A stretch of 64,000 nt of DNA. Origin: Lentzea indica (GTDB lineage: Bacteria > Actinomycetota > Actinomycetes > Mycobacteriales > Pseudonocardiaceae). The stretch lies in contig NZ_VSRL01000018.1 in the NCBI RefSeq assembly GCF_012184385.1, positions 1-64,000 of the forward strand. The letters are read 5' to 3'. Positions within the stretch are counted from its first letter, which is position 1. Every line of letters begins with the position of its first letter. The translations under genes and the position numbers were made by a program. Shown here one piece after another: positions 20,628 through 33,990 of this stretch. Under the pieces are notes generated by a model. It ran no database searches. It had not been told where the DNA came from and worked only from the letters and a program-made list of their open reading frames with translations.

Positions 20628-21295
20628 CGCTTCGGCGACTACGGTCGGCACTCATGAGGCTACTGCTCGCTGTCTTGATGATGGTCGTCCTCGCCCCGGT
20701 CGCGTCCGCGGCACCGGCCACCCCGACCGTGCGGTGCGAGTTCATCCCGACGCCGGAGAACCCGGCGGCCCGCCCGGTCCGGCCGCCGTCGTCCACAGTG
20801 CCCGCGAAAGGCACGGTGAAGGTCACCATCGTGACGAACTACGGGGTGGTCGTGGCCGATCTCGATCGCGCCAACGCACCGTGCGGCGTGGAGAACTTCG
20901 CGCACCTGGCACGAAGCTGGTTCTACACGATGTCCCAGTGCTGGCGCCTGACCGACACCACGCGCCTGGGCGTCCTGCAGTGCGGCGACATCTACCGCGC
21001 AGAGGAGGGCGGCCCCGGCTACCGGTTCGCCGACGAGGTGACCGGTAAGGAGACCTATCCGCGCGGCACGATCGCGTACGGGAACCAGGGTCCCGGCACG
21101 AACGGCAGCGAGTTCTTCATCGTGCACTCGTTCGCCAACATCAAGCCCGTGTACACCGTGATGGGTCACGTCACGTTCGGCATGGACACGCTGGACCGGA
21201 TCGTGAAGGCCGGAATCGTGCCGAAGCCGGACGGGACTTTGGACGGTGCACCGAAGAAGCCGGTCAGGATTCTCCACGTACTAGCTCAGGGTTGA
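20624..21295 (+). CDS. Exported cyclophilin-type peptidyl-prolyl cis-trans isomerase
   Basis: The start is GTG 20624, overlapping the previous stop, or ATG 20654 (MRLLLAVLMMVVLAPVASA). Either way a signal peptide is present, so the enzyme acts outside the membrane. The cyclophilin core is seen as GVENFAHLARSWFYT, LQCGDIYRAEEGGPGYRFADE, GTIAYGNQGPGTNGSEFFIVHS and YTVMGHVTFGMDTLDRI. The usual GDFTxGdGtGG loop is altered to GDIYRAEEGGPG, and the catalytic Arg of the FHR motif reads CWRLTD, where R is kept. It would help fold secreted proteins. Its end overlaps the CHAT gene by 32 bases on the other strand. Confidence 0.85.
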   Translation: MTLRRLRSALMRLLLAVLMMVVLAPVASAAPATPTVRCEFIPTPENPAARPVRPPSSTVPAKGTVKVTIVTNYGVVVADLDRANAPCGVENFAHLARSWFYTMSQCWRLTDTTRLGVLQCGDIYRAEEGGPGYRFADEVTGKETYPRGTIAYGNQGPGTNGSEFFIVHSFANIKPVYTVMGHVTFGMDTLDRIVKAGIVPKPDGTLDGAPKKPVRILHVLAQG

Positions 21296-24200
21296 GCCGG
21301 TCCAGAATTCGATGGACCACTCCGCTGGTCACCTCGTCCACGTCGGCGAACGGCCTGTAATCACGTTCGCCGGCTTGGATGCGGCGCACGGCGTCCACCA
21401 CGGCTTGCTCCTCCACCTTCGCGAGCACAGCATCCAGCGCTGTGGAGTCTTCGAGGTTCGCCACGACCTCCTCGGCGAAAGGCTTCCACCTTTCGAGCAA
21501 GACCACGAAGTGCTCGTTGAGGGCACTGACGGCGTGCTCCACCAGGTCCTTCCCGCTCAACCCGTCCTTGTTGAACAGGTCGACCAGTTCTCGGAACCGG
21601 ACGCCGTCCGTCTCTTCGACCAGTGCGCACACCTCGTCGAACGGCGTGAGCTCAGCCTTGACGAACCCGCTGAACGCGAGCGTGGCGCCCCACAACGCCA
21701 CGGTGTCGAAGTCGTAGCTGCGGCTGAGGCCGGCAGCGAGGACCGCGGCCAGCACGTGCGCCCACGCGCATCGTCTGGCCGCTTCCGAACTGCCCATCGA
21801 CATGGCGAAGACCCGATGGCTGTGCACGATCTGGTCGAAGTCCCACATCGCGTAGTAGGCCCGGAGCGCGTCGCCGGCGCGGCCAGTCGCTCGCTCGCTG
21901 TGGCCGAGTGACATCTCGACGTACGCCAGCGTCATCGACGTCGGCCCGAGGTCTTCGACGCTGCTGGTGCCCAGCACGTCGCGGCACCAACGCAACAGTC
22001 GGAGTGCCTCGTCTCCCCGCTTGAGCTCGCGCAATGCTTGTGTGTAGTGAAGCGTGGCATGTGCCACCTCAGTCGGCAACGCACCTCTGCGCCGCAGCGA
22101 ATCGACCACGTTGGCGCTGAGATGCAACACGAGATCCCACCGGCCGAGAGCAGTAGCCGCAGCCGCAGCCGCTTCGTACAAGCCTTCATAGATGGCATGA
22201 GGCTGTACATGCTCTCCATCGAGAGCCTCTTCGGCCTTCGGCATGCTCGCGAGGAGGTCGCAGGCGCCTTTGAGCACTTCGACGTGCTGTCCCATCATGT
22301 TCGTGACGCTCAGCAGTTCCACCTCGGCTGCCAGCTGTGTCCACACGCCAACTTCGGCCCGCCGGCCGCAGTCGATCATGATCTCGACGAACTTCTTCGC
22401 CTCATCCGGCTGACCACCCACTTTGCACGCGCCTACGAGTTCGCTGGCAACAGCCATCGCGACCACGAACTCTTCTCTTGCCAAAGCCATGCGCAACAGG
22501 CTTTTGGACATGTGGAAGGCGCTTTCGGGATTGGTCCGGGACACCGCTTTGGTCAGGACGGCGGCGATCCCGAGATCGTCACAGCTGCCCTCGCAAGCGC
22601 TCAGCGCCTCCTGGAGGACAGGGCCGACGGCCGCAGCGGCTCTGGCAGAAGGATCCTGGTCCAGCACTGATTCCGCGGCCCTGGCGAGGTTGAGCCACTG
22701 CCTGCCACGCCGGAGGTAGGGCATGGCGCTGAGCGCCGCACGCAAGATCAGCATTGTGGACTGCTCGTGGACCGGCGCGGCCGCGTCGATTTCGAGCGTC
22801 AGCATCCAGCTACCACCAACGTAAACGTCCACCTCAGCCCTGAACTCCACCTCGGCGTCAGCACGACATGTTTCGGCGACGCCGGGGTGGATGTCGAGGC
22901 CTTCGTCGTGCTCTGCGAGCAACGCCCGTTCGGCCAGGGGCCGGACCACCGTGGCGAAAGGCGGACAGGCCTCGTCCGGGTGGAACCTTTGCCAGAACCC
23001 GGGCCAGAGATCGTGGTGTGCCAGCTGCTTACGATCGCGATCCTCCAGACAGCACAGGAAACGCAAGAGGAACACGGAGTCCGGGGGCAGGGTGTCCACC
23101 GCGGCACGTGTCCACGCAGCAAGCACGTCGGCGTAGTCGGCATCGCCCATCTCGGTGTCGTTGAGGCGTGCTGCCAGCGCCTCCGGATCACCGGCGAGGC
23201 TCTCGGCGAACTCGATGAGCTTCGGATGTCCCCGCACCGTCTCCAACGTGCGGGCGGCGAGCAACGCGTGTGGCCCGTCCATCAACGCGCGCAGATTCGG
23301 CAGCAGGCGGGCGAGCAGCACGCTCTCCCGCAACGACAAGGCGTGCACCGCCTCGACCAACGCGGATGACGGCAGACCTGCCGGCGTTCTGCGCGAGGTC
23401 AGCACCAGCCGGGAAAGTCCACTGTGGCCGGACAACGCGGCGATGAACATTCCCCAGCGCTCGTCCCGCCAGCTGCCGTCGGCGCTCAGCAACGACTCGG
23501 CGTTGTCGATGACCACGAGCACTCGCTCGTGCTCCAGCATCTCCGTGAGCTTGGGGAGCTCGCGACACAGGCTGGCGGTGTCGTTGAGCAGGTGCAGCAG
23601 TTTGAGGCCGGGGATCTGAGCTTCGAGCGCGATCACGAAGTCGGACAACGCCATCGTGATCGACTGTCCGTCCGGCGGGGCCGAGTACCACGCGGTCGCG
23701 CCGAACGTGTGATGGAGCATGTAAGCGAGCTCCACGGCCGCAGAGGTCTTGCCGATGCCTGCCATGCCCAGAAACAGGACGCAGGACCGCCCGCTGTTCG
23801 GAGCCAGCGCGGCTGAGGCACGAGTCATCGGCCCGACCCTGCCGACCAGCCGGGCCGGTTGGCCGGGGAACATGGCCAGCTTGCGGCCCTCGATGCGGAA
23901 CTCCGCACGTTCGCCCGCCGGAGCCACGACTTTCATGTCGGCCTGCGCACCGAACAGGGTCGGCGTCGCCACGGAGAACGACGGCACAACGCCCTGCAGC
24001 TCGGTCGCGGTCTTGGCCACAGCGAGCGCCAACGCCTGCACCACTGGCTGTCCCTTGCCCAGCAGGAGGTCGTAAAAGGTCTCGCTCAAACCGATCGCGA
24101 ACTCGTCGGCGACCGGGTGGCGCATGGCCACCACCATGCAGTCGAGCCTGCGGACGAGTGCCGTCGCGACCGCGGGCAACGGCGCTGCTCCCGCCGGCTC

Positions 24201-25052
24201 GTCGTCGGAGCGTTCCGGCACCTGGAAACCGAGCAGCTGCAGGTGCCGTTCCGCGGTCACCGCCGCCGACGAGCAGGCGAACAACGACACGAGCTTGATC
24301 TGCTCGGCCGCGAGTGCGAGGAGATCGACCAGCTCCGCACTGGTGATCTTGTCGCGGCCACCGGACTCGGTCTCCAGCACCAGGCCGGCCGGCAGTCCGT
24401 GGCCGGACACGTGCACCACGTCCCAACCGGGATGGTCGAGCAGCGCTTCCGCCAACTGTTCCCGCGTGGCGCCGTACTGGATGACGCGCAGTTCTATGCG
24501 CTTTTGGTGCACCTTCACGATGTTGAGCATCAGCCGGGCCAGCGCAACGCGTTCCTGCCGCAGGCTCAACGCTCCAGCGCGTTCGGGCAGGCTGAACACC
24601 GCGAGCACGCGCAGCGCGTCTCCGACCTCGCGCTTGCGCCGGACCTCCCGGTCGACGAGGTCCACGACGAAGGTGACGCGCGCGGCAGCAAGCGTTCTCC
24701 CATCGACGTGAGCCAGCTCCCACGGGAGATAGGCGAGCAGTTCGGTGCGTTCGTCCAGCTCCAGTCTCACCGCACCGCCAGCGCGCGCGACCGCCGCTGC
24801 CACCGGCCCCAGCGCCTGGTCTCCGATCCAGGCACCGATCTGGGCCACCACGGCGGCCTCGGTCTCCCGCCTGCGGTCGCTCGCCGACGCGGTGCAGAGG
24901 TAGGAGTGCAGGTTGAAGAACGCCTCGCACTGCCACTCGTCCCTGTTGAGGTCCACTTGGTGGTCGCCGACGAACTCACCGGTGTCAGCGTCTGTCAGCA
25001 GCCATCGCCACCGTGTCGGGCCTTGGTAGTCCCGCACTTCGAGCCGGAGCAT
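21264..25052 (-). CDS. CHAT-domain caspase-like protease fused to an ATPase and helical repeats
   Basis: ATG 25052 (MLRLEVRDYQGP) is preferred because domain-like sequence begins there; the frame is open to 25229. The 1262-residue protein has an N-terminal CHAT protease with catalytic His 218 in HVSGHG and Cys 260 in LVSLFACSS, a P-loop GMAGIGKTS at about 429 and Walker B VLVVIDNAES at 511 (STAND/NB-ARC type), then a long helical TPR-like region to the end. Such architectures are self-activating switches in which ligand sensing by the repeats frees the protease, and several bacterial relatives act in cell death or phage defence. No partner substrate gene (gasdermin, Csx-like) is adjacent; the neighbours are a cyclophilin and the LuxC/LuxE operon. 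Confidence 0.85.
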   Translation of the reverse strand: MLRLEVRDYQGPTRWRWLLTDADTGEFVGDHQVDLNRDEWQCEAFFNLHSYLCTASASDRRRETEAAVVAQIGAWIGDQALGPVAAAVARAGGAVRLELDERTELLAYLPWELAHVDGRTLAAARVTFVVDLVDREVRRKREVGDALRVLAVFSLPERAGALSLRQERVALARLMLNIVKVHQKRIELRVIQYGATREQLAEALLDHPGWDVVHVSGHGLPAGLVLETESGGRDKITSAELVDLLALAAEQIKLVSLFACSSAAVTAERHLQLLGFQVPERSDDEPAGAAPLPAVATALVRRLDCMVVAMRHPVADEFAIGLSETFYDLLLGKGQPVVQALALAVAKTATELQGVVPSFSVATPTLFGAQADMKVVAPAGERAEFRIEGRKLAMFPGQPARLVGRVGPMTRASAALAPNSGRSCVLFLGMAGIGKTSAAVELAYMLHHTFGATAWYSAPPDGQSITMALSDFVIALEAQIPGLKLLHLLNDTASLCRELPKLTEMLEHERVLVVIDNAESLLSADGSWRDERWGMFIAALSGHSGLSRLVLTSRRTPAGLPSSALVEAVHALSLRESVLLARLLPNLRALMDGPHALLAARTLETVRGHPKLIEFAESLAGDPEALAARLNDTEMGDADYADVLAAWTRAAVDTLPPDSVFLLRFLCCLEDRDRKQLAHHDLWPGFWQRFHPDEACPPFATVVRPLAERALLAEHDEGLDIHPGVAETCRADAEVEFRAEVDVYVGGSWMLTLEIDAAAPVHEQSTMLILRAALSAMPYLRRGRQWLNLARAAESVLDQDPSARAAAAVGPVLQEALSACEGSCDDLGIAAVLTKAVSRTNPESAFHMSKSLLRMALAREEFVVAMAVASELVGACKVGGQPDEAKKFVEIMIDCGRRAEVGVWTQLAAEVELLSVTNMMGQHVEVLKGACDLLASMPKAEEALDGEHVQPHAIYEGLYEAAAAAATALGRWDLVLHLSANVVDSLRRRGALPTEVAHATLHYTQALRELKRGDEALRLLRWCRDVLGTSSVEDLGPTSMTLAYVEMSLGHSERATGRAGDALRAYYAMWDFDQIVHSHRVFAMSMGSSEAARRCAWAHVLAAVLAAGLSRSYDFDTVALWGATLAFSGFVKAELTPFDEVCALVEETDGVRFRELVDLFNKDGLSGKDLVEHAVSALNEHFVVLLERWKPFAEEVVANLEDSTALDAVLAKVEEQAVVDAVRRIQAGERDYRPFADVDEVTSGVVHRILDRLNPELVRGES

Positions 25053-25470
25053 CGCGCAAGGGTACTCACCGTTCTTCCCGACCCTCTCAGGTAGTCGCCG
25101 TTTTGTTGAAACTGCGACTAGTTGCTTTTGGCCAAGGAATAGCGCGGCGAGAGAGCGTGGTGTTGACATGTGACAGAAGGAAAAGGGGCCGGGAAAGCGA
25201 CCTCGATCACAGCCTTTCAGGCCCCTCACCAGCTAGGACTCACCCGAAAGAACCATCGGCAATTAAGGGGGATTTGATGGTTCGTGTGATCCCGCTCGCC
25301 CCGAGGAATCAATTCCGCAGCTCGTGCGGTTCCCTCACCTGAACGGCGGTTGTACCGGCCAGTAACGTGGAAACGGTCAACCCCCAGCATTGGCAAGAAG
25401 TCGGTCCGGGCTCCCGCCAGCTCCGTGCATCGGCTCATTCAGCATGCGCGGAAACGAAGGAGGAACAGGA
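25053..25470. other. Intergenic region between the CHAT gene and the acyl-processing operon
   Basis: About 420 bases that hold possible N-terminal extension codons of the CHAT gene (25053-25229), the small ORF at 25277-25342, and the ribosome site GGAGG before the GTG at 25471. It should contain both divergent promoters. Apart from these I see nothing definable. Confidence 0.5.
25277..25342 (+). CDS. Possible 21-residue peptide upstream of the LuxE/LuxC operon
   Basis: ATG 25277 is preceded by AAGGGGGA with good spacing and opens a 21-codon frame starting MVRVIPLAPRNQF and ending near SSCGSLT before TGA. It lies 128 bases before the GNAT start on the same strand, in the gap between the CHAT gene and the operon. 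It could be a leader peptide, a precursor peptide or chance. No repeats, no attenuator hairpin and no RiPP-type enzyme were recognised with certainty. Confidence 0.3.
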   Translation: MVRVIPLAPRNQFRSSCGSLT

Positions 25471-26598
25471 GTGGCACCCGAGTTCGAGCAGGCTCGGCTC
25501 GACGACGTCGACGACCTGCTCAGGCTCTACCGGCGGGCGCACGGCGCGAACTACCCCATCGCGATGGGCACCGACCCCGACGTCATGGTGGCGGAGATCG
25601 AGGCCGCGCACACCACGTGGCTGGTGTGGCGCAAGGACGGCCACGTGGTCGCCTCGATCACCGGGCACGTCGAAGCCCAGGACCGTCTCGGCAAGATCGC
25701 CGGCCTGGTGGTGGATCCCGCCGCGCAGGGCGGCGGTGTCGCGCACCACGCGGTCGGGCAGATCACCGAACGGATGCTCGCGAGCGGCGAGGTCGACTCG
25801 GTCTACGGCACCGCGCGGACCATTCACCTCGCGCCGCAGAGAGTGTGCCTGCGCAACGGTTTCCACGCGCTCGGGCTCGTGCCGAACCTGTTCAAGCACG
25901 CCAAGAGGGAAACCATGGCGTTGCTGGCCAAGCACCGTGACGGCGTCCTCGGCCAGCGGGCCGAGGTCCACAAGGTTCCGAAGAGCCTCGAGAAGCTCGT
26001 CATGACGACACACGAGAAAATCGGGCTCCCCGCGCTGCCGGAGTTCGTCGACGACAGCGACATCCCCGCAGCCGAAACGTCACGACTGGAGATCATCGAG
26101 GCGTCGCGGTTCGTGCAGCGGCACTTCGAGCGCAACATCAACGACCCGGCGCGCCGGTTCTACCCGCTGCACAAGCCGAACGTGCTGCTGGCCGACGAGC
26201 AGGGCGAGTACCAGATCTACGGTCACCTCAACCGCCACGACGGCTACTGCACGATCTTCGGTGCGACACCCGGTCCGCAGAAGCTGTTGCCGCATCTCGG
26301 CGGCGTGATCGACACGCTGGCAGGAATGGGTGCGCCGCACGTCGAGACGCTGGTGCCGCTGCACGAGTTCGACGAGCTGAGTGCGTTGCTGGCGTTCGGT
26401 TTCCTGCCGGTGGCGCTGTACCCGGCGATGCGCAAGGACGGCGACCTCTACCACGACTACGTGGTCATGGTGCACACGCCGCAGCCGCCCGACTTCCGCG
26501 GGCTCACGATCGACGAGGCGTTCCGGCCGTTCACCGAGCAGTACATCGAGCTGTGGACGCAGAAGTTCCTCAACACCAACGGAGTTTTCTGTTCATGA
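25471..26598 (+). CDS. GNAT-family acyltransferase, probably with two GNAT-like halves
   Basis: GTG 25471 is chosen because GGAGGAACAGGA sits just upstream; the longer open frame from 25390 is unsupported. The 375 residues begin with a GNAT fold: DDVDDLLRLYRRAHG, then AGLVVDPAAQGGGVAHHAV as the acetyl-CoA loop, near residue 90. A second region (from about 230) has related features such as MGAPHVETLVPLHEFDELSALLAFGFLPVALYP, here quoted in part, and may be a second GNAT-like domain. It opens a coupled operon with LuxE- and LuxC-like enzymes (ATGA overlap with the next gene), so the natural role is transfer of an acyl group in that pathway. Substrate unknown. Confidence 0.75.
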   Translation: MAPEFEQARLDDVDDLLRLYRRAHGANYPIAMGTDPDVMVAEIEAAHTTWLVWRKDGHVVASITGHVEAQDRLGKIAGLVVDPAAQGGGVAHHAVGQITERMLASGEVDSVYGTARTIHLAPQRVCLRNGFHALGLVPNLFKHAKRETMALLAKHRDGVLGQRAEVHKVPKSLEKLVMTTHEKIGLPALPEFVDDSDIPAAETSRLEIIEASRFVQRHFERNINDPARRFYPLHKPNVLLADEQGEYQIYGHLNRHDGYCTIFGATPGPQKLLPHLGGVIDTLAGMGAPHVETLVPLHEFDELSALLAFGFLPVALYPAMRKDGDLYHDYVVMVHTPQPPDFRGLTIDEAFRPFTEQYIELWTQKFLNTNGVFCS

Positions 26599-27734
26599 AC
26601 CCCCACCTCGGTCCAGCAACGGTGCCGGACCCCTCGCTCAGTGCTGTCCAGGCGCTGTGCGACATCGTGGCGCCGTACGACCACACTGACGAGACCTTGT
26701 TCCTCGAAGCGATGAACGAGTCGAACCGCTGGCACGCCCAGCGCAACGAGTTCTTCCGCAGCCTGTGGAACGGCAAGCCACTCAAGGACATCACCGAACA
26801 GCCTTACGTGCACGCCAACTTCTTCAAGATGCACGAGGTGCTGTCGGTGCCGCGCGACGAGGTCGTCGTGCACGCCACGTCGTCCGGCACGACCGGGCAG
26901 AAGTCGCAGATGTTCTGGGACGCCTGGACGTTGCGTGCGGGCAAGCGGATGGTCGCGCGGATCTACGACCACAACGGGTTCATCGACGACACCGAGCCGG
27001 TGCACTACCTGATCAACCTCAACCAGCCGATGCCGAGCGTGAAGCTGGGAAGCTCGTTCACGGGCCAGTTCATGACCGACTTCGCTCCCGTGCGGTCGGT
27101 GGACTACGGCCTCGCGCACACCGGCGCCGGCCACGAGTTCGACGCGTTCGGCAGCATCCGTGCCCTGCAACGGTTCGCGGACAGCGGCCTGCCGGTGCGG
27201 ATCTTCGGGTTCCCGGCGTTCCTCAGCTTCACCATCGACCGCATGCGCGCCATGGGCGTGGAGCCGCTGCGGCTCAACGAGCGTTCGCTCGTGTGGTTCG
27301 GCGGCGGCTGGAAGGGCAACGCGGACAAGCAGATCGGCAAGGAAGAGCTGCGCGCCAAGGTCACCGAGATGCTCGGCATCCCGGACGTGCGGATCCGCGA
27401 CAGCTACGGATCGGTCGAGCACTCCGTGCCGTACGTCGAGTGCGCGCACCACAACCTGCACGTGCCGACCTGGTCGCGCGCGATCGTCCGGGACGTCCGG
27501 ACGCTGGAGCCGTTGCCGCACGGCGAATCCGGCTACATCCAGTTCGTTTCCCCTTACATCACCTCGGCGCCCGCGCAGAGCGTGCTGATGGGTGACCTCG
27601 CCGCACTGCACGCACCTGAGGAGTGCGGGTGCGGCAACGAGACCCCGTGGTTCGAGATCCTCGGCCGCGCCGGTGTCTCCCGCAACCGTTCCTGCGCCAT
27701 CGCCGCAGCAGAGCTCCTGAAGGACAAGGCATGA
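26595..27734 (+). CDS. LuxE-like acyl-protein synthetase (adenylate-forming)
   Basis: ATG 26595 overlaps the GNAT stop as ATGA. The 379 residues match acyl-protein synthetases: the adenylate-binding motif HATSSGTTGQKSQMF near residue 95, GWKGNADKQIGKEEL, DSYGSVEHSVPYVEC, and LMGDLAAL near the end. The C-terminus has RNRSCAIAAAELL, corresponding to the region of the acyl-accepting Cys in LuxE. In bioluminescent bacteria LuxE activates a fatty acid with ATP and passes the acyl group to LuxC for reduction to aldehyde. Here the acyl substrate is unknown, and no luxAB luciferase or luxD is present. Confidence 0.83.
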   Translation: MNPHLGPATVPDPSLSAVQALCDIVAPYDHTDETLFLEAMNESNRWHAQRNEFFRSLWNGKPLKDITEQPYVHANFFKMHEVLSVPRDEVVVHATSSGTTGQKSQMFWDAWTLRAGKRMVARIYDHNGFIDDTEPVHYLINLNQPMPSVKLGSSFTGQFMTDFAPVRSVDYGLAHTGAGHEFDAFGSIRALQRFADSGLPVRIFGFPAFLSFTIDRMRAMGVEPLRLNERSLVWFGGGWKGNADKQIGKEELRAKVTEMLGIPDVRIRDSYGSVEHSVPYVECAHHNLHVPTWSRAIVRDVRTLEPLPHGESGYIQFVSPYITSAPAQSVLMGDLAALHAPEECGCGNETPWFEILGRAGVSRNRSCAIAAAELLKDKA

Positions 27735-30204
27735 ACCGGCACTTCTGGCAGGGCGAGTGGGTCGGCGACAAGGACATCGCTGACCGGCTCGACACCCTGG
27801 ACGACCGCACCCAGCAGGTCATCACCGGCCCGCGGCTGAGCCCGCTCGTGGTGCTCGCGGCCGCGGAGAAGCTGGTGCTGGAGAACCACCGCGCGGCGCT
27901 GGTCGCGTGGGGTCTCGACGAGACGGAGATCGACGAGACGCTGGACGCGTTGCGGCACGCGGTGAGCAGGCCCGAGCTGGAGCGCAAGCTCAAGCGCGAG
28001 CTCGGCAACCTCGACCCCGCGCGGATGGTCCGCTTCGACTTCCGCACGCCCACGTACGAGGCCTGGGTGCCGCTCGGGCTGCTCGCGCACGTGACTGCGG
28101 GCAACGCACCCGCGGCGGGCGTCCTGAGCGCCGTTGAGGGCCTGCTTTCCGGCAACCTCAACGTCATCAAGGTCGCTTCGGACGACTCCGGCTTCACCGC
28201 CGACGTGCTCGCCGAACTGGCCTCGCACGACCAGACCGGCCAGATCGCCGCACGGCTCATCGTGCTGCGTTTCTCGTCAAGCAACGCCGACTGGATGGCG
28301 CGCATGCTCGGCGCGGCCGACGCCGTCGCGGTGTGGGGCGGCGAGGAAGCGATCAACGGCGTCACCGAGCTGGTCCGGCCGGGCACACGGGTGATCGACT
28401 GGGGCCCGAAGCTGTCGTTCGCCTACCTGACCCGTGACTCCTGGTCCGATGTGGACACACTGCACGCGCTCGCCGCGGACGTGTGCCAGCTGGAGCAGCA
28501 GGCCTGCTCCAGCCCGCAGGTGATCTACCTCGACACCGAGGACCCTGCACAGGTCTTCGCGTTCGCCGAGCGGTTCGCCGGCGTCCTGGAGCTGACCGGG
28601 CAGCCGACCCGCGAGCCGTCGCAGGCGGAGTGGGCGGAGATCACGAACACCGTCGTCGTGGCGCAGCTGGAAGAGCACCTCGGCCTCACGAAGGTGCACA
28701 CCGGCGAGCACTGGCGGGTACTGGCGGACGTGCGCTCCGCGTTGCGCACGTCGCCGCTGTACCGGACGGTGTGGGTGAAGCCGCTGGCGCGCAAGCAGGT
28801 CACCTCCGTACTGCGGCCGATGCGCCGCTACCTGCAGACCGTCGGCCTCGCGGCGGATCGACCCGACACAGCCGCACTCGCCCGCGCGTTCGTCTCCGTC
28901 GGCGTGCAGCGGATCACCACGCCGGGCTCGATGCTCGGCGGCTACAGCGGTGAGCCGCACGATGGCGTCTACGCGTTGCAGCGCTACAGCAACCGGGTCT
29001 CCGTGCAGCTCGACGACAGGTTCGTCACGGACGCGTCTCTGGACGACCTGGCCGAGTCGCGCCAGCTGCCCGTTCCGCCGGTGTCCGTGACGTTGAAGTC
29101 CGACTTCGAGACACTGCAAGACCGTTCTGCGGACGTGTACTTCCGCAGCGGCGGCAGCTCTGGCGCGCCCAAGCTGTCCGCGTACACGTGGGCCGACTGG
29201 GACGAGCAGATGTGGGTCGGCGCCGAGGCGTTGCTGGCCACCGGACTCGACCCGCGGCACAACCGGATCATGAACCTGTTCTTCAACGGGCACATGTACG
29301 CGAGCTTCGTCAGCTTCTTCTCCGCGCTGGAGCGGATGAACGCCGTGCAGTTCCCGATGGGCGGAGAATGGGACCAGCTCGACGCGATCGCTCAGGCCAT
29401 TGTGGACAACCGCGTCGACACGCTGCTGACCGCGCCCTCGTTCGTGCAGCGGCTCTTCGCCGAGCACGGTGAGCAGCTGAAGGCGTACGGCGGCATCCGC
29501 AAGATCTTCTACGCGGGCGAGCACTTCGGCGCGCAGGCCATCGCGCGGCTGCGGGACGAGTTCGGCGTCGAGACAATCCGCTCGGCGGCCTACGCGACCG
29601 TCGACGCGGGACCCGTCGGCTATCAGTGCCAGGCGTCCGACGGCAAGGTGCACCACCTGTTCACCGGCTTGCACACGCTGGAGATCCTTGATCCCGAGAC
29701 GGACCGGTCGTCTCGGGATCCGAGCCCGGCAGGCTGGTCTTCACCACGCACACCCGGCGTGGTCAGCGGCTGGAGCGCTACGAGATCGGCGACCTCGGCC
29801 GGTGGATCTCCGGCGACTGCCCGTGCGGCCGCCGCACACCGAGGTTCGAGCTGCTGGGCCGCACCGGTGACGTGTTCAGGGCAGCCGCGCAGACGTTGAA
29901 CTACCGGCGATTCCTCACGATTCTGGAAGACGAGCACAGCTACGCCGGCGCGTTGCAGATCGAGCTCAACGAGGACGCGTCCGGCGAGGAGTTGGTGGTG
30001 CGTCTGGAATGCGGGCGTGCACCGGAGCCCGCCGCCAGCCAGATCACGCTGCTTTCCCGTTATGCCGAGGTCGCGGAGGCGGTCGAGCAGGACGGGTTGC
30101 TGAAGGTGCGTGTGGAGAACGTTCCACTGGCGGACTTCGTGCGGACGAAGAGCAGCGGCAAGTTGATCGCGGTCGTCGACCAGCGCAGCAGCAGGAGTGT
30201 GTGA
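27731..30204 (+). CDS. LuxC-like acyl reductase fused to a PaaK-like adenylating domain, apparent frameshift near 29,700
   Basis: ATG 27731 overlaps the luxE-like stop as ATGA. The first half is a LuxC-type acyl-CoA/acyl-protein reductase: LGLLAHVTAGNAPAAGV near residue 118 and LEQQACSSPQVIY near 258, holding the catalytic Cys. From about residue 470 a second enzyme begins, an adenylate-forming domain with YFRSGGSSGAPKL near 480 and AAYATVDAGPVGYQC near 625. In the frame used so far this ends in non-protein-like sequence after 29,700; the other frame continues with GRLVFTTHTRRGQRLERYEI and DLGRWISGDCPCG and runs to 30204. Adding one G to the GG at 29701-29702 gives a clean join (ETGPVVSGSEPGRLV). 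About 824 residues. The fusion of reductase and ligase is unusual. Confidence 0.75.
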
Positions 30205-30207
30205 ACC

Positions 30208-31425
30208 GTGTCCGTGCTCGACCTCATTTGCTATGCCCGCACGCACTCCCCGTTCTACGAGGAGCTGTACGACGGCGTCGAAGGCTCCGAGCTGGCCGAC
30301 CTGCCGGTGGTCGACCAGGCGGCGTTCTGGGCCGCGAACACCGTCCGCGACAACCGGGTGCTGACCCGCGCCCACACGGACGGGCTGATCTTCAAGACCG
30401 GCGGCACGACCAAGGCTCCTCGGGTGTCCTTCTACAGCACCGAGGAGTGGGACGCGATGTGCCGCACGTACGCGGAGACTCTGCCCGCGGCCGGGCTGCG
30501 GCACGGTGACCGGATCGCGAACCTGTTCGCGGCCGGCGAGCTCTATTCGAGTTTCATCTTCGCGTTGAACGCCCTGCAGCGGTCGCCGATCGACCTGGTG
30601 CAGCTGCCGATCACCGGCAGTGCTCCTGTCGAGTTCACCCTGACGACGATGCAGGACTTCGACGCCAACGTCGTGGCGGGCTTCCCGACGACGTTGTGCC
30701 GGCTGGCCGCGCACGTCGTCTCCTCGGTCGGATCGCTGCCGTTGGTTCGGTTGATCCTCTTTAGCGGTGAGGCTTTGTACGACGATCAGCGTGCCCTGCT
30801 GGCCAGCGCATTTCCCGAGGCCGAGTTCCGGTCGTTCGTCTACGGCAGCGTGGACGGCGGGATCATCGGCACGGCGGTGCTCGACTCGGACGATCCTCGG
30901 GTCTTTCGCTCCTTTGTGGACAGCTCAGTGCTGGAGATCGTCGACATCGAGACCGGCAAGGTGATCACCGAGCCGGGCCGTCCTGGGCGGTTGCTCCAGA
31001 CCGATCTGACCAGGCGGTTGCAGCCGATGATCCGCTACCCCGTCGGCGACATGGCGGAGTGGGTCGACCAGGAGGACGGGATCTTCCGGCTGCTCGGGCG
31101 GGCCGACGAGGGCGCGCGGGTCGGGCCCGTGACGTTGCACCTCGACCACCTGCGGGCGGCCGTCGACCGCGCCGGGATCGTGCACAACGGCGTTCAGGTC
31201 GTGATCCGACGGGTGGACGCGCGGGACCAGCTGGTGCTGCGGATCGCCGGCGAGGCTCAGGACTTCGAGTCCGTGCGCGATCAGGTCCACGTGATCAGCC
31301 CACGGTTCGAGCTGCAGGTGGGGCGAGGAACCGTGGCACCGCTGGAGGTGGAGTGGGTCTCGGCGCTGGAGGTCAATCCCCGCAGCGGGAAGACCGTCCG
31401 GTTGATCGACGAACGCCCGTGCTGA
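30208..31425 (+). CDS. PaaK/LuxE-like adenylate-forming enzyme
   Basis: GTG 30208 lies three bases after the preceding stop. The 405 residues carry IFKTGGTTKAPRVSFYS near residue 62 (phosphate-binding loop), FVYGSVDGGIIGTA near 211 and IRYPVGDMAEW near 275, in the order of phenylacetate-CoA ligase relatives. It is homologous to the adenylating half of the gene before it. It probably activates a carboxylate as acyl-AMP and loads it on CoA, a protein or an amine. No carrier protein is encoded in the operon. It is the last gene of the coupled set that begins with the GNAT. Confidence 0.75.
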   Translation: MSVLDLICYARTHSPFYEELYDGVEGSELADLPVVDQAAFWAANTVRDNRVLTRAHTDGLIFKTGGTTKAPRVSFYSTEEWDAMCRTYAETLPAAGLRHGDRIANLFAAGELYSSFIFALNALQRSPIDLVQLPITGSAPVEFTLTTMQDFDANVVAGFPTTLCRLAAHVVSSVGSLPLVRLILFSGEALYDDQRALLASAFPEAEFRSFVYGSVDGGIIGTAVLDSDDPRVFRSFVDSSVLEIVDIETGKVITEPGRPGRLLQTDLTRRLQPMIRYPVGDMAEWVDQEDGIFRLLGRADEGARVGPVTLHLDHLRAAVDRAGIVHNGVQVVIRRVDARDQLVLRIAGEAQDFESVRDQVHVISPRFELQVGRGTVAPLEVEWVSALEVNPRSGKTVRLIDERPC

Positions 31426-31466: not shown

Positions 31467-32216
31467 GTGCCGGTGCGAAAGATCCTGGTCATCGGTATCG
31501 GCGCGGGCAACCCCGACCACCTGACGGTGCAGGCCGTCAAGGCGTTGCAGACGGTCGACGTGTTCTTCGTGCTGGACAAGGGTTCTGTGAAGCAAGAGCT
31601 CGTCGACCTGCGGCAGTCGATCCTCACCGCGCACGTGACGCGGCCGTACCGGTGGGTCGAGGGCAGGGATCCGGAGCGTGACCGCGCGGCCGCGGACTAC
31701 GTCTCCGCTGTCGACGACTGGCGCCGGGCTCGCGCGGACGTCTGCCTTTCGTTGCTCTCGGAGCTGGGCGAGGACGAGGTCGGGGCGTTCCTGGTGTGGG
31801 GCGACCCGTCCCTGTACGACTCGACGCTGGCGATCCTCGACGACCTGCTGGGCCGCGGCTCGGAGTTCGAGGTCGAGGTGATCCCCGGGGTCACGTCGGT
31901 GGCGGCGTTGACGGCCGGGCACCGCGTGTCGCTGAACCAGGTCGGCAAGCCCGTGCAGATCACGACAGGACGGCGGCTGGCCGCCGGGTGGCCCTCCGAT
32001 GTGGACGACGTGGCCGTGATGCTGGACGCGTCGTACGCATTCGAGGGCGTTGACCCGGACACGTGGATCTACTGGGGCGCGTATCTCGGGATGCCGGACC
32101 AGATCCTGGTGTCCGGGCGGGTCGGGGACGTGGCCGCGCAGATCCGCTCGGTGCGCGAGGAAGCCCGTGCGCGCAAGGGCTGGATCATGGACACCTACTT
32201 GCTGCGCAGGACCTGA
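31467..32216 (+). CDS. cobF: Precorrin-6A synthase (deacetylating)
   Basis: The 249-residue protein (GTG 31467, or GTG 31473) fits CobF: ILVIGIGAGNPDHLTVQAV at the N-terminus as the SAM-binding loop, DKGSVKQELVDLR, FLVWGDPSLYDSTL, VIPGVTSVAALTAGHRV and a C-terminal YWGAYLGMPDQIL. CobF methylates C1 of precorrin-5 with loss of acetate in aerobic cobalamin synthesis. No other cob genes are in the window and no riboswitch is seen in the 41 bases upstream, so it is probably transcribed with the acyl-processing operon by position alone. Confidence 0.9.
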   Translation: MPVRKILVIGIGAGNPDHLTVQAVKALQTVDVFFVLDKGSVKQELVDLRQSILTAHVTRPYRWVEGRDPERDRAAADYVSAVDDWRRARADVCLSLLSELGEDEVGAFLVWGDPSLYDSTLAILDDLLGRGSEFEVEVIPGVTSVAALTAGHRVSLNQVGKPVQITTGRRLAAGWPSDVDDVAVMLDASYAFEGVDPDTWIYWGAYLGMPDQILVSGRVGDVAAQIRSVREEARARKGWIMDTYLLRRT

Positions 32217-33121
32217 TCCAGGTTCTGCAGCCGGATCTGTTCCGCGGCCTCGTCGTGGAGGAACGGCAGTGTGCAGAAGCGGCGGCCCGTCGTGACCGGT
32301 GTGACCTCGTGCAGCAGTGAGCAGGAGAACACGAGGGCATCGCCTGGTCGCGCTCGGTAGGTTCTGCGGCCGTACTCCGGGAACCTGAGTTCGCCGCCCT
32401 CGAAGTCGTCGTTGAGGTTGATCGTGACGGCGAACCTGCGGTGTGCGGTGCCCTTCGTGGTGTTGTCGCGGTGGGCTTTGAAGTGACCACCGGTTTCGGC
32501 CTCGTAGCAGGCGATGATCCAGCGTTCGACCCGCGTGGCCCTGAACTGGAACGCTCGCTGGATCTCCGGGATCAGGCGGCGTTCGACGCGGTCTTTGAGG
32601 CCTTGCCTGAGCGGGTCTTCGAGCGTGAGGTCTTGGCGGCGTTTGTGGGCATGGTCGTGAACGGTTGCGGTGCGGCCCTGGTCATCCGTGCGCATGAAGC
32701 CGCTGTCTTGGCCGCCTTGCCGTTCGTAATGGGCGACGAGTTCTTGGCAGAACTCCGGCTCCAGCACGCGCGGCACGGTGAGGACAGGGGCGGCCAGGCC
32801 GATGTCCGGCACGTCCGGGATCGGTTCGCCCTGCGGCACTATCGCTTCGACTCGGAGGTTGGCGTCGAGCAGTGCGGAAGCCTTGCCGATGCCGTACGCG
32901 GTCGCGATCTGGCCGTCGTCGACGATGACCGTGACGTCGTCCGGTGGGTCGCACGGCTTTGGCACGACCCACACGAGCTTCTCTTCTGCTGCCAGCAGGT
33001 GCTCGTCGAGTTCATCCACAAAGGACAGGATGACCCGCTGCCCCGCTTCCTCGCTGAACCAGTAGCCGCCGTCCTCGGTCCTGACGGCGAACAGCGGCGC
33101 CCGGTCGCCCGGAGTGACCAT
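32195..33121 (-). CDS. 2-oxoglutarate/Fe(II) oxygenase with N-terminal redoxin-like domain
   Basis: The 308-residue protein has two parts. Residues 1-100 (PGDRAPLFAVRTEDG ...) resemble an AhpC/TSA-type redoxin fold, without a catalytic Cys in the usual position. Residues 120-308 are a prolyl-4-hydroxylase-type 2OG oxygenase: GGHFKAHRDN supplies His and Asp, LLHEVTPVTTGRR supplies the second His and the Arg that binds 2-oxoglutarate, and NLNDDFEGGELRFPEYG is typical. Its ATG at 33121 shares one base with the stop of the repeat-peptide gene (TGATG), so the two must be co-translated. The peptide is therefore an attractive candidate substrate. Its stop overlaps the end of cobF by 22 bases on the other strand. 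Confidence 0.85.
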   Translation of the reverse strand: MVTPGDRAPLFAVRTEDGGYWFSEEAGQRVILSFVDELDEHLLAAEEKLVWVVPKPCDPPDDVTVIVDDGQIATAYGIGKASALLDANLRVEAIVPQGEPIPDVPDIGLAAPVLTVPRVLEPEFCQELVAHYERQGGQDSGFMRTDDQGRTATVHDHAHKRRQDLTLEDPLRQGLKDRVERRLIPEIQRAFQFRATRVERWIIACYEAETGGHFKAHRDNTTKGTAHRRFAVTINLNDDFEGGELRFPEYGRRTYRARPGDALVFSCSLLHEVTPVTTGRRFCTLPFLHDEAAEQIRLQNLDQVLRSK

Positions 33122-33306
33122 CAGAGCGTGTCGTTGCCGTCCGGCAGCATCAGGACGTCGTTGCCGTCCGGTGCGATGAGAATGTCGTTGCCCTGCGGTG
33201 CGATCAGGACGTCGTTGCCGTCGGGCGTCGCCTCCGCGACTCCTCCGGTCATGGCCGTCGCGACGATCACCGAACCCGCGATCAGAACCTTGCGCACGTT
33301 CCCCAC
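33121..33306 (-). CDS. Exported 61-residue peptide with four tandem PxGNDxLxx repeats
   Basis: The start is GTG 33306, or GTG 33297 with GGGGAAC before it. The first 25 residues are a signal peptide (VRKVLIAGSVIVATAMTGGV, cleavage near AEA-T). All of the rest is four copies of a nine-residue unit, P-[D/Q]-G-N-D-[V/I]-L-[I/M]-[A/L], the last one shortened to PDGNDTL. At the DNA level the units are 27-base repeats differing mainly at wobble positions. No Cys is present. I recognise no family. The stop shares a base with the start of the 2OG oxygenase, pointing to a precursor/modifier pair, or to a repeat peptide whose N, D or P residues are hydroxylated. That is inference. Confidence 0.75.
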   Translation of the reverse strand: MGNVRKVLIAGSVIVATAMTGGVAEATPDGNDVLIAPQGNDILIAPDGNDVLMLPDGNDTL

Positions 33307-33338
33307 CCCCAGTTGTGGTTTTCGTCCTGGGGTCGAGG

Positions 33339-33875
33339 CTACTCGGCGATCAGTCGCCTGACCGCGCGTTCGACGAGTTCACGGGTGGCGTTCGGGGTGC
33401 TGAAGGCGAGGATCGACGTGTGCACGACCAGGTCCAGCAGGTCCGAGGCGTTGAACGCGGCGGAGACCTTGCCCTCCATCTGCGCCTTCGCGACGGCCTC
33501 GACCTTGTGCTGGTAGGCCTCGGCTTCCGCCTTCGGGATGGCGTCGAAGCCGTTCTCGAGACGGTGGTAGGCCGCGAGCCTGAGCACCTGCGGCCGCTCC
33601 ACGTACGAGTCGAACAGCCGGCCCGCGTAGTTCGGCAGATCATCGGGCGTGATGGGGACGGCCTCGATCATGCGGTCGATCTGGATCTTCAGCAGCTCGT
33701 CGAACAGGCCCTCCTTGCTGCCGAAGTAGGCGTAGATCATCGCCTTGTTGCAGCCTGCCTTGGCCGCGATGCGATCGACCCGCGCGCCCGCGATGCCGTG
33801 CTCGGCGAACTCGTCCAGCGCCGCTTCGAGCAGCTTCGCCTTGGTCGCTTCCTTGTCCCTCACCACGCTCCGCAT
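33339..33875 (-). CDS. TetR family transcriptional regulator
   Basis: ATG 33875 (MRSVVRDKEATKAKLLEAAL) gives 178 residues; an extension to 33953 would read through the operator palindromes and is rejected. The HTH is ARVDRIAAKAGCNKAMIYAYFGSKEGL, quoted here only by its ends ARVDRIAAKAG and MIYAYFGSKEG. The C-terminal ligand domain is ordinary. It is divergent from an SDR gene with four palindromes between, so it most likely represses itself and the SDR gene. Confidence 0.88.
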   Translation of the reverse strand: MRSVVRDKEATKAKLLEAALDEFAEHGIAGARVDRIAAKAGCNKAMIYAYFGSKEGLFDELLKIQIDRMIEAVPITPDDLPNYAGRLFDSYVERPQVLRLAAYHRLENGFDAIPKAEAEAYQHKVEAVAKAQMEGKVSAAFNASDLLDLVVHTSILAFSTPNATRELVERAVRRLIAE

Positions 33876-33878
33876 TCT

Positions 33879-33990
33879 AACCAACCGGTTGGTAGAAGCA
33901 ACTAACCAGTTGGTTGACAGGCTGGCGCCGACGTGGTTGCCTGGATTTAGCAACCAAACAGTTAGTTAGTCCAGCCAACCGGTTAGTTGG
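33879..33990. promoter_or_regulatory. Four operator-like palindromes between tetR and the SDR gene
   Basis: Site 1 at 33879-33894 contains the perfect palindrome CCAACCGGTTGG; site 2 at 33902-33917 contains AACCAGTTGGTT; site 3 at 33951-33967 contains AACCAAACAGTTAGTT; site 4 at 33974-33990 contains CCAACCGGTTAGTTGG. A consensus AACYAACNGGTTNGTT fits all four. They fill the divergent promoter, sites 1-2 next to tetR and 3-4 next to the SDR gene, as expected for a TetR regulator of both genes. Confidence 0.8.

What the first reader, a model, noticed from the sequence alone, without database searches (positions are those of the whole stretch)
32195..33306. A four-repeat exported peptide translationally coupled to a 2-oxoglutarate oxygenase
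The sequence shows a 61-residue ORF with a signal peptide and then only four copies of PxGNDxLxx; its stop codon shares a base with the start of a prolyl-hydroxylase-type oxygenase that also has a redoxin-like N-terminus. Repeats rich in Pro, Asn and Asp next to a 2OG oxygenase suggest a precursor peptide hydroxylated at P, N or D, which would be an undescribed modified-peptide system. Direct proof is absent; the signal peptide and the apparently cytoplasmic enzyme raise the question of when modification would occur.
Basis: partly seen in the sequence, partly recalled or inferred. Interest (0 to 1): 0.85.

Follow-up and report, generated by a model that had tools for sequence, protein, structure and literature searches.

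The report
Repeat peptide paired with hydroxylase enzyme
Some Lentzea bacteria carry a two-gene cassette encoding a short, apparently exported peptide of four repeats and a hydroxylase-type enzyme; in the genomes compared the two genes are present or absent together, so they probably form a new peptide-modification pair, though no modification has been shown.

Summary
A small, apparently exported peptide (33121-33306, minus strand) has four 9-residue repeats, and its stop codon shares one base with the start of a 2-oxoglutarate oxygenase (32195-33121). Both genes occur in the same 3 of 24 Lentzea genomes searched. In 15 of the other 21, where both flanks could be read, the site is empty: tetR and cobF stop -22 to +53 bp apart, against 1080-1122 bp in the carriers. 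The carriers do not group together in a tree of flanking genes, so the pair was probably gained or lost as a unit more than once. The repeats reach Pfam's cut-off for RTX nonapeptides, but Pro stands where RTX repeats most often have Gly2; Pro is there in 1 of 495 comparison repeats. The enzyme has a complete Fe/2OG site and a fold near PKHD/PiuC and prolyl hydroxylases. Elsewhere its family lacks the peptide: no GND-repeat ORF at 94 other loci. Best reading: the enzyme hydroxylates its neighbour peptide before Sec export, on Pro of [AL]P[DQ]G or on Asn/Asp of GND. Modification is inferred, not shown.

The parts
33121..33306 (-). Repeat peptide gene (61 codons; possible alternative GTG start at 33297)
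33229..33306 (-). Sec signal peptide by eye (MGNVRKVLIAGSVIVATAMTGGVAEA); no signal predictor run
   Evidence: hydropathy; AEA/AQA in three species
33124..33228 (-). Mature part: four RTX-like nonapeptides with Pro at RTX position 2; 35 aa, 7 Asp, no Lys/Arg, no Cys
33119..33123 (-). TGATG stop/start overlap sharing base 33121
   Evidence: identical in three species
32195..33121 (-). 2OG-Fe(II) oxygenase (308 aa) with degenerate redoxin-type N-domain; HxD...H at H217, D219, H271 and R281
33339..33953 (-). TetR-family regulator upstream (32 bp gap), possibly co-transcribed; also present in genomes without the cassette
31467..32216 (+). cobF (precorrin-6A synthase), convergent; other flank of the site

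Best explanation
A two-gene cassette between tetR and cobF of some Lentzea species makes a short RTX-derived peptide with a Sec signal and a cytoplasmic prolyl-hydroxylase-type 2OG oxygenase. The overlap of stop and start couples their synthesis. The oxygenase binds the not yet exported peptide and hydroxylates about one residue per repeat, most likely the Pro of [AL]-Pro-[DQ]-Gly, otherwise the Asn or Asp of Gly-Asn-Asp. The modified acidic peptide of about 35 residues is then exported and cleaved, to act outside the cell, perhaps as a Ca2+ or Fe ligand. Shown: gene pair, conservation, joint presence and absence, complete active-site motif, predicted fold. Inferred: signal peptide, coupling, modification, target residue, timing, outside role.
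For: The same 3 of 24 genomes carry both genes. 15 empty sites, no room for a remnant. In a FastTree of three flanking genes from 20 of 24 genomes, L. waywayandensis groups with seven non-carriers (0.986) without the other two carriers. TGATG identical in 3 of 3. Purifying selection on both genes. H217, D219, H271 and R281 invariant in 36 aligned sequences (window, two Lentzea, 33 of the 78 Pseudomonadota loci); the Asp ligand that human AspH lacks (PMC4543633 passages) is there. Model pLDDT 91.3; after PKHD/PiuC the listed fold matches are mostly protein prolyl hydroxylases, among them P. putida P4H with EF-Tu (4iw3, TMq 0.48, 2.8 A) and PHD2 with HIF peptides. Pro at RTX position 2 in 10 of 12 Lentzea repeats against 1 of 495 comparison repeats. 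The peptide model is of very low confidence (pLDDT 44), compatible with disorder, as in HIF substrates of PHDs (PMC7864055 passages).
Against: No direct evidence of modification. The enzyme family is common without the peptide (94 homologue loci outside Lentzea, no GND-repeat ORF), so its ancestral substrate is something else. Pro in repeat 1 is not conserved. No recognition domain, protease or transporter was identified beside the pair (not searched for systematically beyond the Pfam and NCBIfam scans of neighbours). The MNIO precedent uses another enzyme class.
Confidence: 0.5

Rival explanations
1. The oxygenase acts on another substrate (a cell protein, or an iron- or oxygen-related small molecule, as its relatives without a peptide must), and the peptide is a separately acting, co-expressed exported partner.
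For: No GND-repeat ORF at 94 homologue loci outside Lentzea; nearest solved relatives by sequence are PKHD/PiuC type, titled pseudomonal iron uptake factor C in the PDB.
Against: Joint presence and absence in Lentzea; one-base overlap; the Lentzea enzymes form their own clade.
Confidence: 0.25
2. The peptide is a small secreted Ca2+/metal-binding RTX fragment that needs no modification; Pro at position 2 is only a structural change.
For: PF00353 match above cut-off; Asp at RTX position 6 kept in all four repeats.
Against: Pro at position 2 is rare in comparison repeats (1 of 495); does not explain the constant oxygenase neighbour.
Confidence: 0.15
3. The small ORF is a leader peptide whose translation or stalling during export controls the downstream oxygenase (a SecM-like monitor; comparison recalled).
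For: Signal-bearing short ORF directly upstream with stop/start overlap.
Against: Amino acids of the peptide are under purifying selection; the C-end shows no arrest motif that I recall; repeats are not needed for such a role.
Confidence: 0.1

Closest known systems
RTX nonapeptide repeat proteins (PF00353)
   Same: G-N-D-x-L core spaced by 9 residues; Pfam cut-off reached
   Different: Only about 35 mature residues and a Sec-type signal; Ala/Leu/Thr at position 1 and Pro at position 2 (Gly in 430 and 259 of 495 comparison repeats)
Protein prolyl hydroxylases (P. putida PPHD, PHD2, algal P4H)
   Same: Fold and Fe/2OG motif; a peptidyl target is plausible; Ala-Pro sites as recalled for HIF and EF-Tu
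   Different: Extra degenerate redoxin N-domain; 13-24% identity over all 50 fold matches listed; substrate unknown
PKHD-type hydroxylase / PiuC family
   Same: Nearest solved relatives by sequence (3dkq E 9.9e-9; PiuC 9ghl 1.6e-5)
   Different: Best family score 57.8 bits against a cut-off of 143; match covers the catalytic domain only
MNIO-modified RiPPs with Sec signals (bufferins and kin; PMC12452194, passages)
   Same: Signal-bearing precursor gene before an iron oxidative enzyme gene; modification before Sec export
   Different: Different enzyme superfamily (PF13640), no Cys in the peptide, no DUF2063-type partner seen beside the pair

Membership tests
RTX repeat (PF00353) | Profile score at or above gathering threshold | tested here: met
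   26.4 bits against 23
RTX repeat (PF00353) | Gly at positions 1 and 2 of GGxGxDxUx (motif recalled) | tested here: not met
   Window: Thr/Ala/Ala/Leu and Pro; comparison repeats: Gly1 430, Gly2 259, Pro2 1 of 495
2OG-Fe(II) oxygenase superfamily (PF13640) | Profile match; HxD...H and distal Arg | tested here: met
   54.5 bits against 27; H217, D219, H271, R281 invariant in 36 aligned sequences
Prolyl 4-hydroxylase (functional) | Hydroxylates a peptidyl proline | not testable with these tools
   Only fold similarity
PKHD/PiuC (NCBIfam) | Curated family cut-off | tested here: not met
   NF003974 57.8/143, NF003975 40.2/180, NF003973 30.8/336, NF003972 20.2/399 bits
Redoxin/AhpC-TSA N-domain | Profile match | tested here: inconclusive
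   27 of 36 aligned members match PF00578, the window protein does not; the alignment profile matches peroxiredoxin structures
Redoxin/AhpC-TSA N-domain | Conserved peroxidatic Cys | tested here: not met
   No invariant or nearly invariant Cys in N-domain columns; a Cys in the VLCF strand is common in relatives but absent from the three Lentzea proteins
RiPP | Precursor gene beside a modifying-enzyme gene | tested here: inconclusive
   Adjacency and co-occurrence shown; that the enzyme modifies the peptide is not
RiPP | Post-translational modification of the peptide | not testable with these tools
   Needs mass spectrometry
MNIO RiPP (bufferin type) | DUF692/MNIO enzyme and Cys-containing precursor | tested here: not met
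   Enzyme is PF13640; peptide has no Cys

The most novel reading that the evidence does not exclude
A new class of ribosomal modified peptide: a four-repeat, Sec-exported, RTX-derived peptide hydroxylated in the cytoplasm by a redoxin-fused prolyl-hydroxylase-type enzyme, turning regularly spaced Pro, Asn or Asp positions into an extracellular metal ligand (with three or more beta-hydroxy-Asp it could hold Fe(III) like a ribosomal siderophore).
Probability: 0.4. Interest if true: 0.8.

Novelty: new variant of a known kind. Interest (0 to 1): 0.6.

Why it matters
If true, it would be a minimal two-gene system for regular hydroxylation of an exported peptide in bacteria, would give a substrate to a redoxin-2OG oxygenase family for which the paper searches made here turned up none, and would extend Sec-exported modified peptides beyond the MNIO enzymes. 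It is directly testable: two small genes, one expected mass shift of 16 Da per site.

Tried and rejected
Oxygenase family generally paired with repeat peptides: rejected. Of 97 homologue loci, frames of 25-300 codons within 1.5 kb (where the locus reaches that far) hold three or more GxDx[LIVF] in the 3 Lentzea loci and in 1 of 94 others, L074, whose three hits (GLDAV, GLDGL, GGDGF) are not GND and sit in a 187-codon frame. General periodicity does not separate as cleanly: L220 has a 5-residue repeat antisense to the oxygenase (0.90) and L019 a 7-residue one, also antisense (0.71), beside 0.72-0.83 for the Lentzea peptides. Pararoseomonas L014 has a large RTX frame about 2.5 kb downstream (1 of 78 Pseudomonadota loci, flanks 3 kb), judged coincidental.

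Oxygenase elsewhere: 4 of 249 family genomes (three Lentzea and G037), 1 of 298 order genomes (the window's own), 16 of 396 phylum genomes (own and 15).

Peptide elsewhere: family (repeat part only, 14 of 249 genomes with any match) and phylum (50 of 396) searches gave, besides the Lentzea peptides, only weak matches (best E 1.3e-4 and 7.7e-5) in open frames of at least 184 and 121 codons, taken to be RTX-like proteins and not inspected one by one. A short, diverged peptide could be missed by these searches.

Overlapping plus-strand ORF 32441-33361: judged spurious. Third-codon-position changes dominate in the minus-strand frames, and in L. waywayandensis the long antisense frame is split.

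Viral relatives: best 34% identity over part of the catalytic domain, generic 2OG oxygenases, not followed. Plasmids: six records, none covering 80% of the query.

Peptide fold: pLDDT 44, uninterpretable. Promoter/terminator scan: none found. GC of the two genes (0.66) is like the window (0.67); GC3 (0.87, 0.84) is a little below four neighbours (0.89-0.93).

Literature: nine searches (three of them returned no paper) showed no such pair in the listed titles and abstract starts. Read: passages of PMC12452194, PMC4543633 and PMC7864055, abstract and outline of PMC12636315, nothing else.

The tree uses only the three flanking genes; 20 of 24 genomes entered (three without a tetR match and L181, whose SDR match failed the cut, were left out, and three lack cobF data), and the window with L. 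alba has only 0.864. The alignment took 33 of 78 Pseudomonadota loci and no actinobacterial one. One search covered L010-L054 and L091 and its output was cut. The oxygenase tree flags long branches; nine homologues with doubtful frames (L021, L023, L025, L027, L031, L033, L041, L050, L052) were left out. In it the window enzyme pairs with L. waywayandensis (99/88), against L. alba in the flanking-gene tree. The 495 comparison repeats come from loci fetched with the peptide as query and from any frame with four or more spaced matches, so a few may be spurious.

Full report
WHAT IS THERE. On the minus strand, tetR (33339-33953), a 61-codon peptide gene (33121-33306) and a 308-codon oxygenase gene (32195-33121) lie head to tail; cobF (31467-32216) converges on them. 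The peptide stop TGA and the oxygenase ATG share base 33121. The gap between tetR and the peptide is 32 bp. By eye the peptide is a Sec signal (MGNVRKVLIAGSVIVATAMTGGVAEA) and a 35-residue mature part with four [DQ]GNDxL units, 7 Asp, no Lys, Arg or Cys. A second in-frame GTG at 33297, preceded by GGGGGTGGGGAA in three species, may be the true start. Nine-residue self-identity is the highest of all frames of 36 codons or more in the window (18 of 27, against 9-10 in five simulated windows).

CONSERVATION. Lentzea alba NEAU-D13 (L008) and L. waywayandensis DSM 44232 (L009) carry the same two genes with four repeats and the same TGATG. Peptide identity is 88% to each. dN/dS, from the values, is about 0.25-0.43 for the peptide and 0.20-0.39 for the oxygenase, which points to purifying selection on both; the peptide has only 60 codons, so its values are rough.

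CO-OCCURRENCE AND EMPTY SITES. The oxygenase occurs in 3 of 24 genomes of the genus and the peptide in the same 3 of 24. A tetR homologue (E up to 1e-50) is present in 21 of 24. In 15 genomes without the pair, tetR and cobF could both be read, and their stops lie -22 to +53 bp apart; in the three carriers the distance is 1080-1122 bp. In three further genomes cobF was not found in the fetched stretch, and three had no tetR match. A tree of SDR, cobF and tetR from 20 genomes places the window with L. alba (0.864) and L. waywayandensis with seven non-carriers (0.986). So the pair was probably gained or lost as a unit more than once. The oxygenase tree pairs the window with L. waywayandensis instead (99/88), which would fit transfer inside the genus.

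THE ENZYME. PF13640 is reached (54.5 bits against 27). H217, D219, H271 and R281 are invariant in 36 aligned sequences (their roles as Fe and 2OG ligands are from general knowledge of the superfamily). The model has mean pLDDT 91.3. Fold matches are led by the PKHD-type 3dkq and PiuC, then algal P4H, PHD2, viral P4H and the P. putida P4H/EF-Tu complex. The N-domain is a degenerate redoxin: 27 of 36 aligned members match AhpC-TSA, the window protein does not, and no N-domain Cys is conserved. In the tree of 88 sequences the three Lentzea enzymes fall with 37 Pseudomonadota sequences (100/99), apart from 16 actinobacterial homologues (one of the same family, L091) and 32 further Pseudomonadota sequences. 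This suggests acquisition by transfer; the program warns of long branches.

THE PEPTIDE. It passes the PF00353 cut-off, so the repeat is RTX-type. In 495 RTX-like repeats from 40 frames of loci fetched with this peptide as query, Gly stands at position 1 in 430 and at position 2 in 259, and Pro at position 2 in 1. In the Lentzea peptides Pro stands there in 10 of 12 repeats (repeat 1 of the two relatives has Thr or Arg). A repeated Pro where RTX repeats hardly ever have one, next to a prolyl-hydroxylase-type enzyme, is the best hint at the target. The Ala-Pro context recalls the sites of HIF and EF-Tu (motifs recalled, not from a call). The Asn and Asp of GND, unchanged in all 12 repeats, remain candidates.

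AGAINST. The oxygenase family does not need the peptide: at 94 homologue loci outside Lentzea (78 Pseudomonadota, 16 actinobacterial) no GND-repeat ORF was found within 1.5 kb; one, L074, has three looser GxDx hits in a 187-codon frame. Nothing shows modification. Pro of repeat 1 is not conserved.

HOW IT PROBABLY WORKS. Coupled translation places enzyme and unexported peptide together; hydroxylation precedes Sec export. Sec-signal precursors modified before export are described for MNIO RiPPs; the authors call the feature rare and suggest that partner proteins may mask the signal (PMC12452194, passages). No partner gene was seen here; the redoxin domain could play that part (speculation).

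VERDICT. A real, conserved gene pair, most likely enzyme and substrate (0.5); new variant of a known kind, with an open chance (0.4) of a new class of modified peptide.

Noticed in passing
window 25390-31425 (+): A run of frames with a GNAT, a LuxE-type ligase, a LuxC-type reductase frame joined to an AMP-ligase-like part (27623-29899) and a ligase-like protein (30208-31425, below NCBIfam cut-offs): a possible acyl-reduction or biosynthetic cluster.
   Followed up: partly
L016, L020, L021, L022, L026, L028: In these alphaproteobacterial loci the oxygenase homologue is followed closely by a small gene that looks like a sigma factor (by eye, no family search).
   Followed up: no
window 21264-25229 (-): Large frame (1321 aa) with a CHAT domain match and a weak AAA match.
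   Followed up: no
window 32195-33306 (-): The oxygenase has higher synonymous divergence (dS 0.44-0.58) than tetR and cobF (0.32-0.38), the peptide lower (0.17-0.28): different gene histories, or constraint on the repeat DNA.
   Followed up: no
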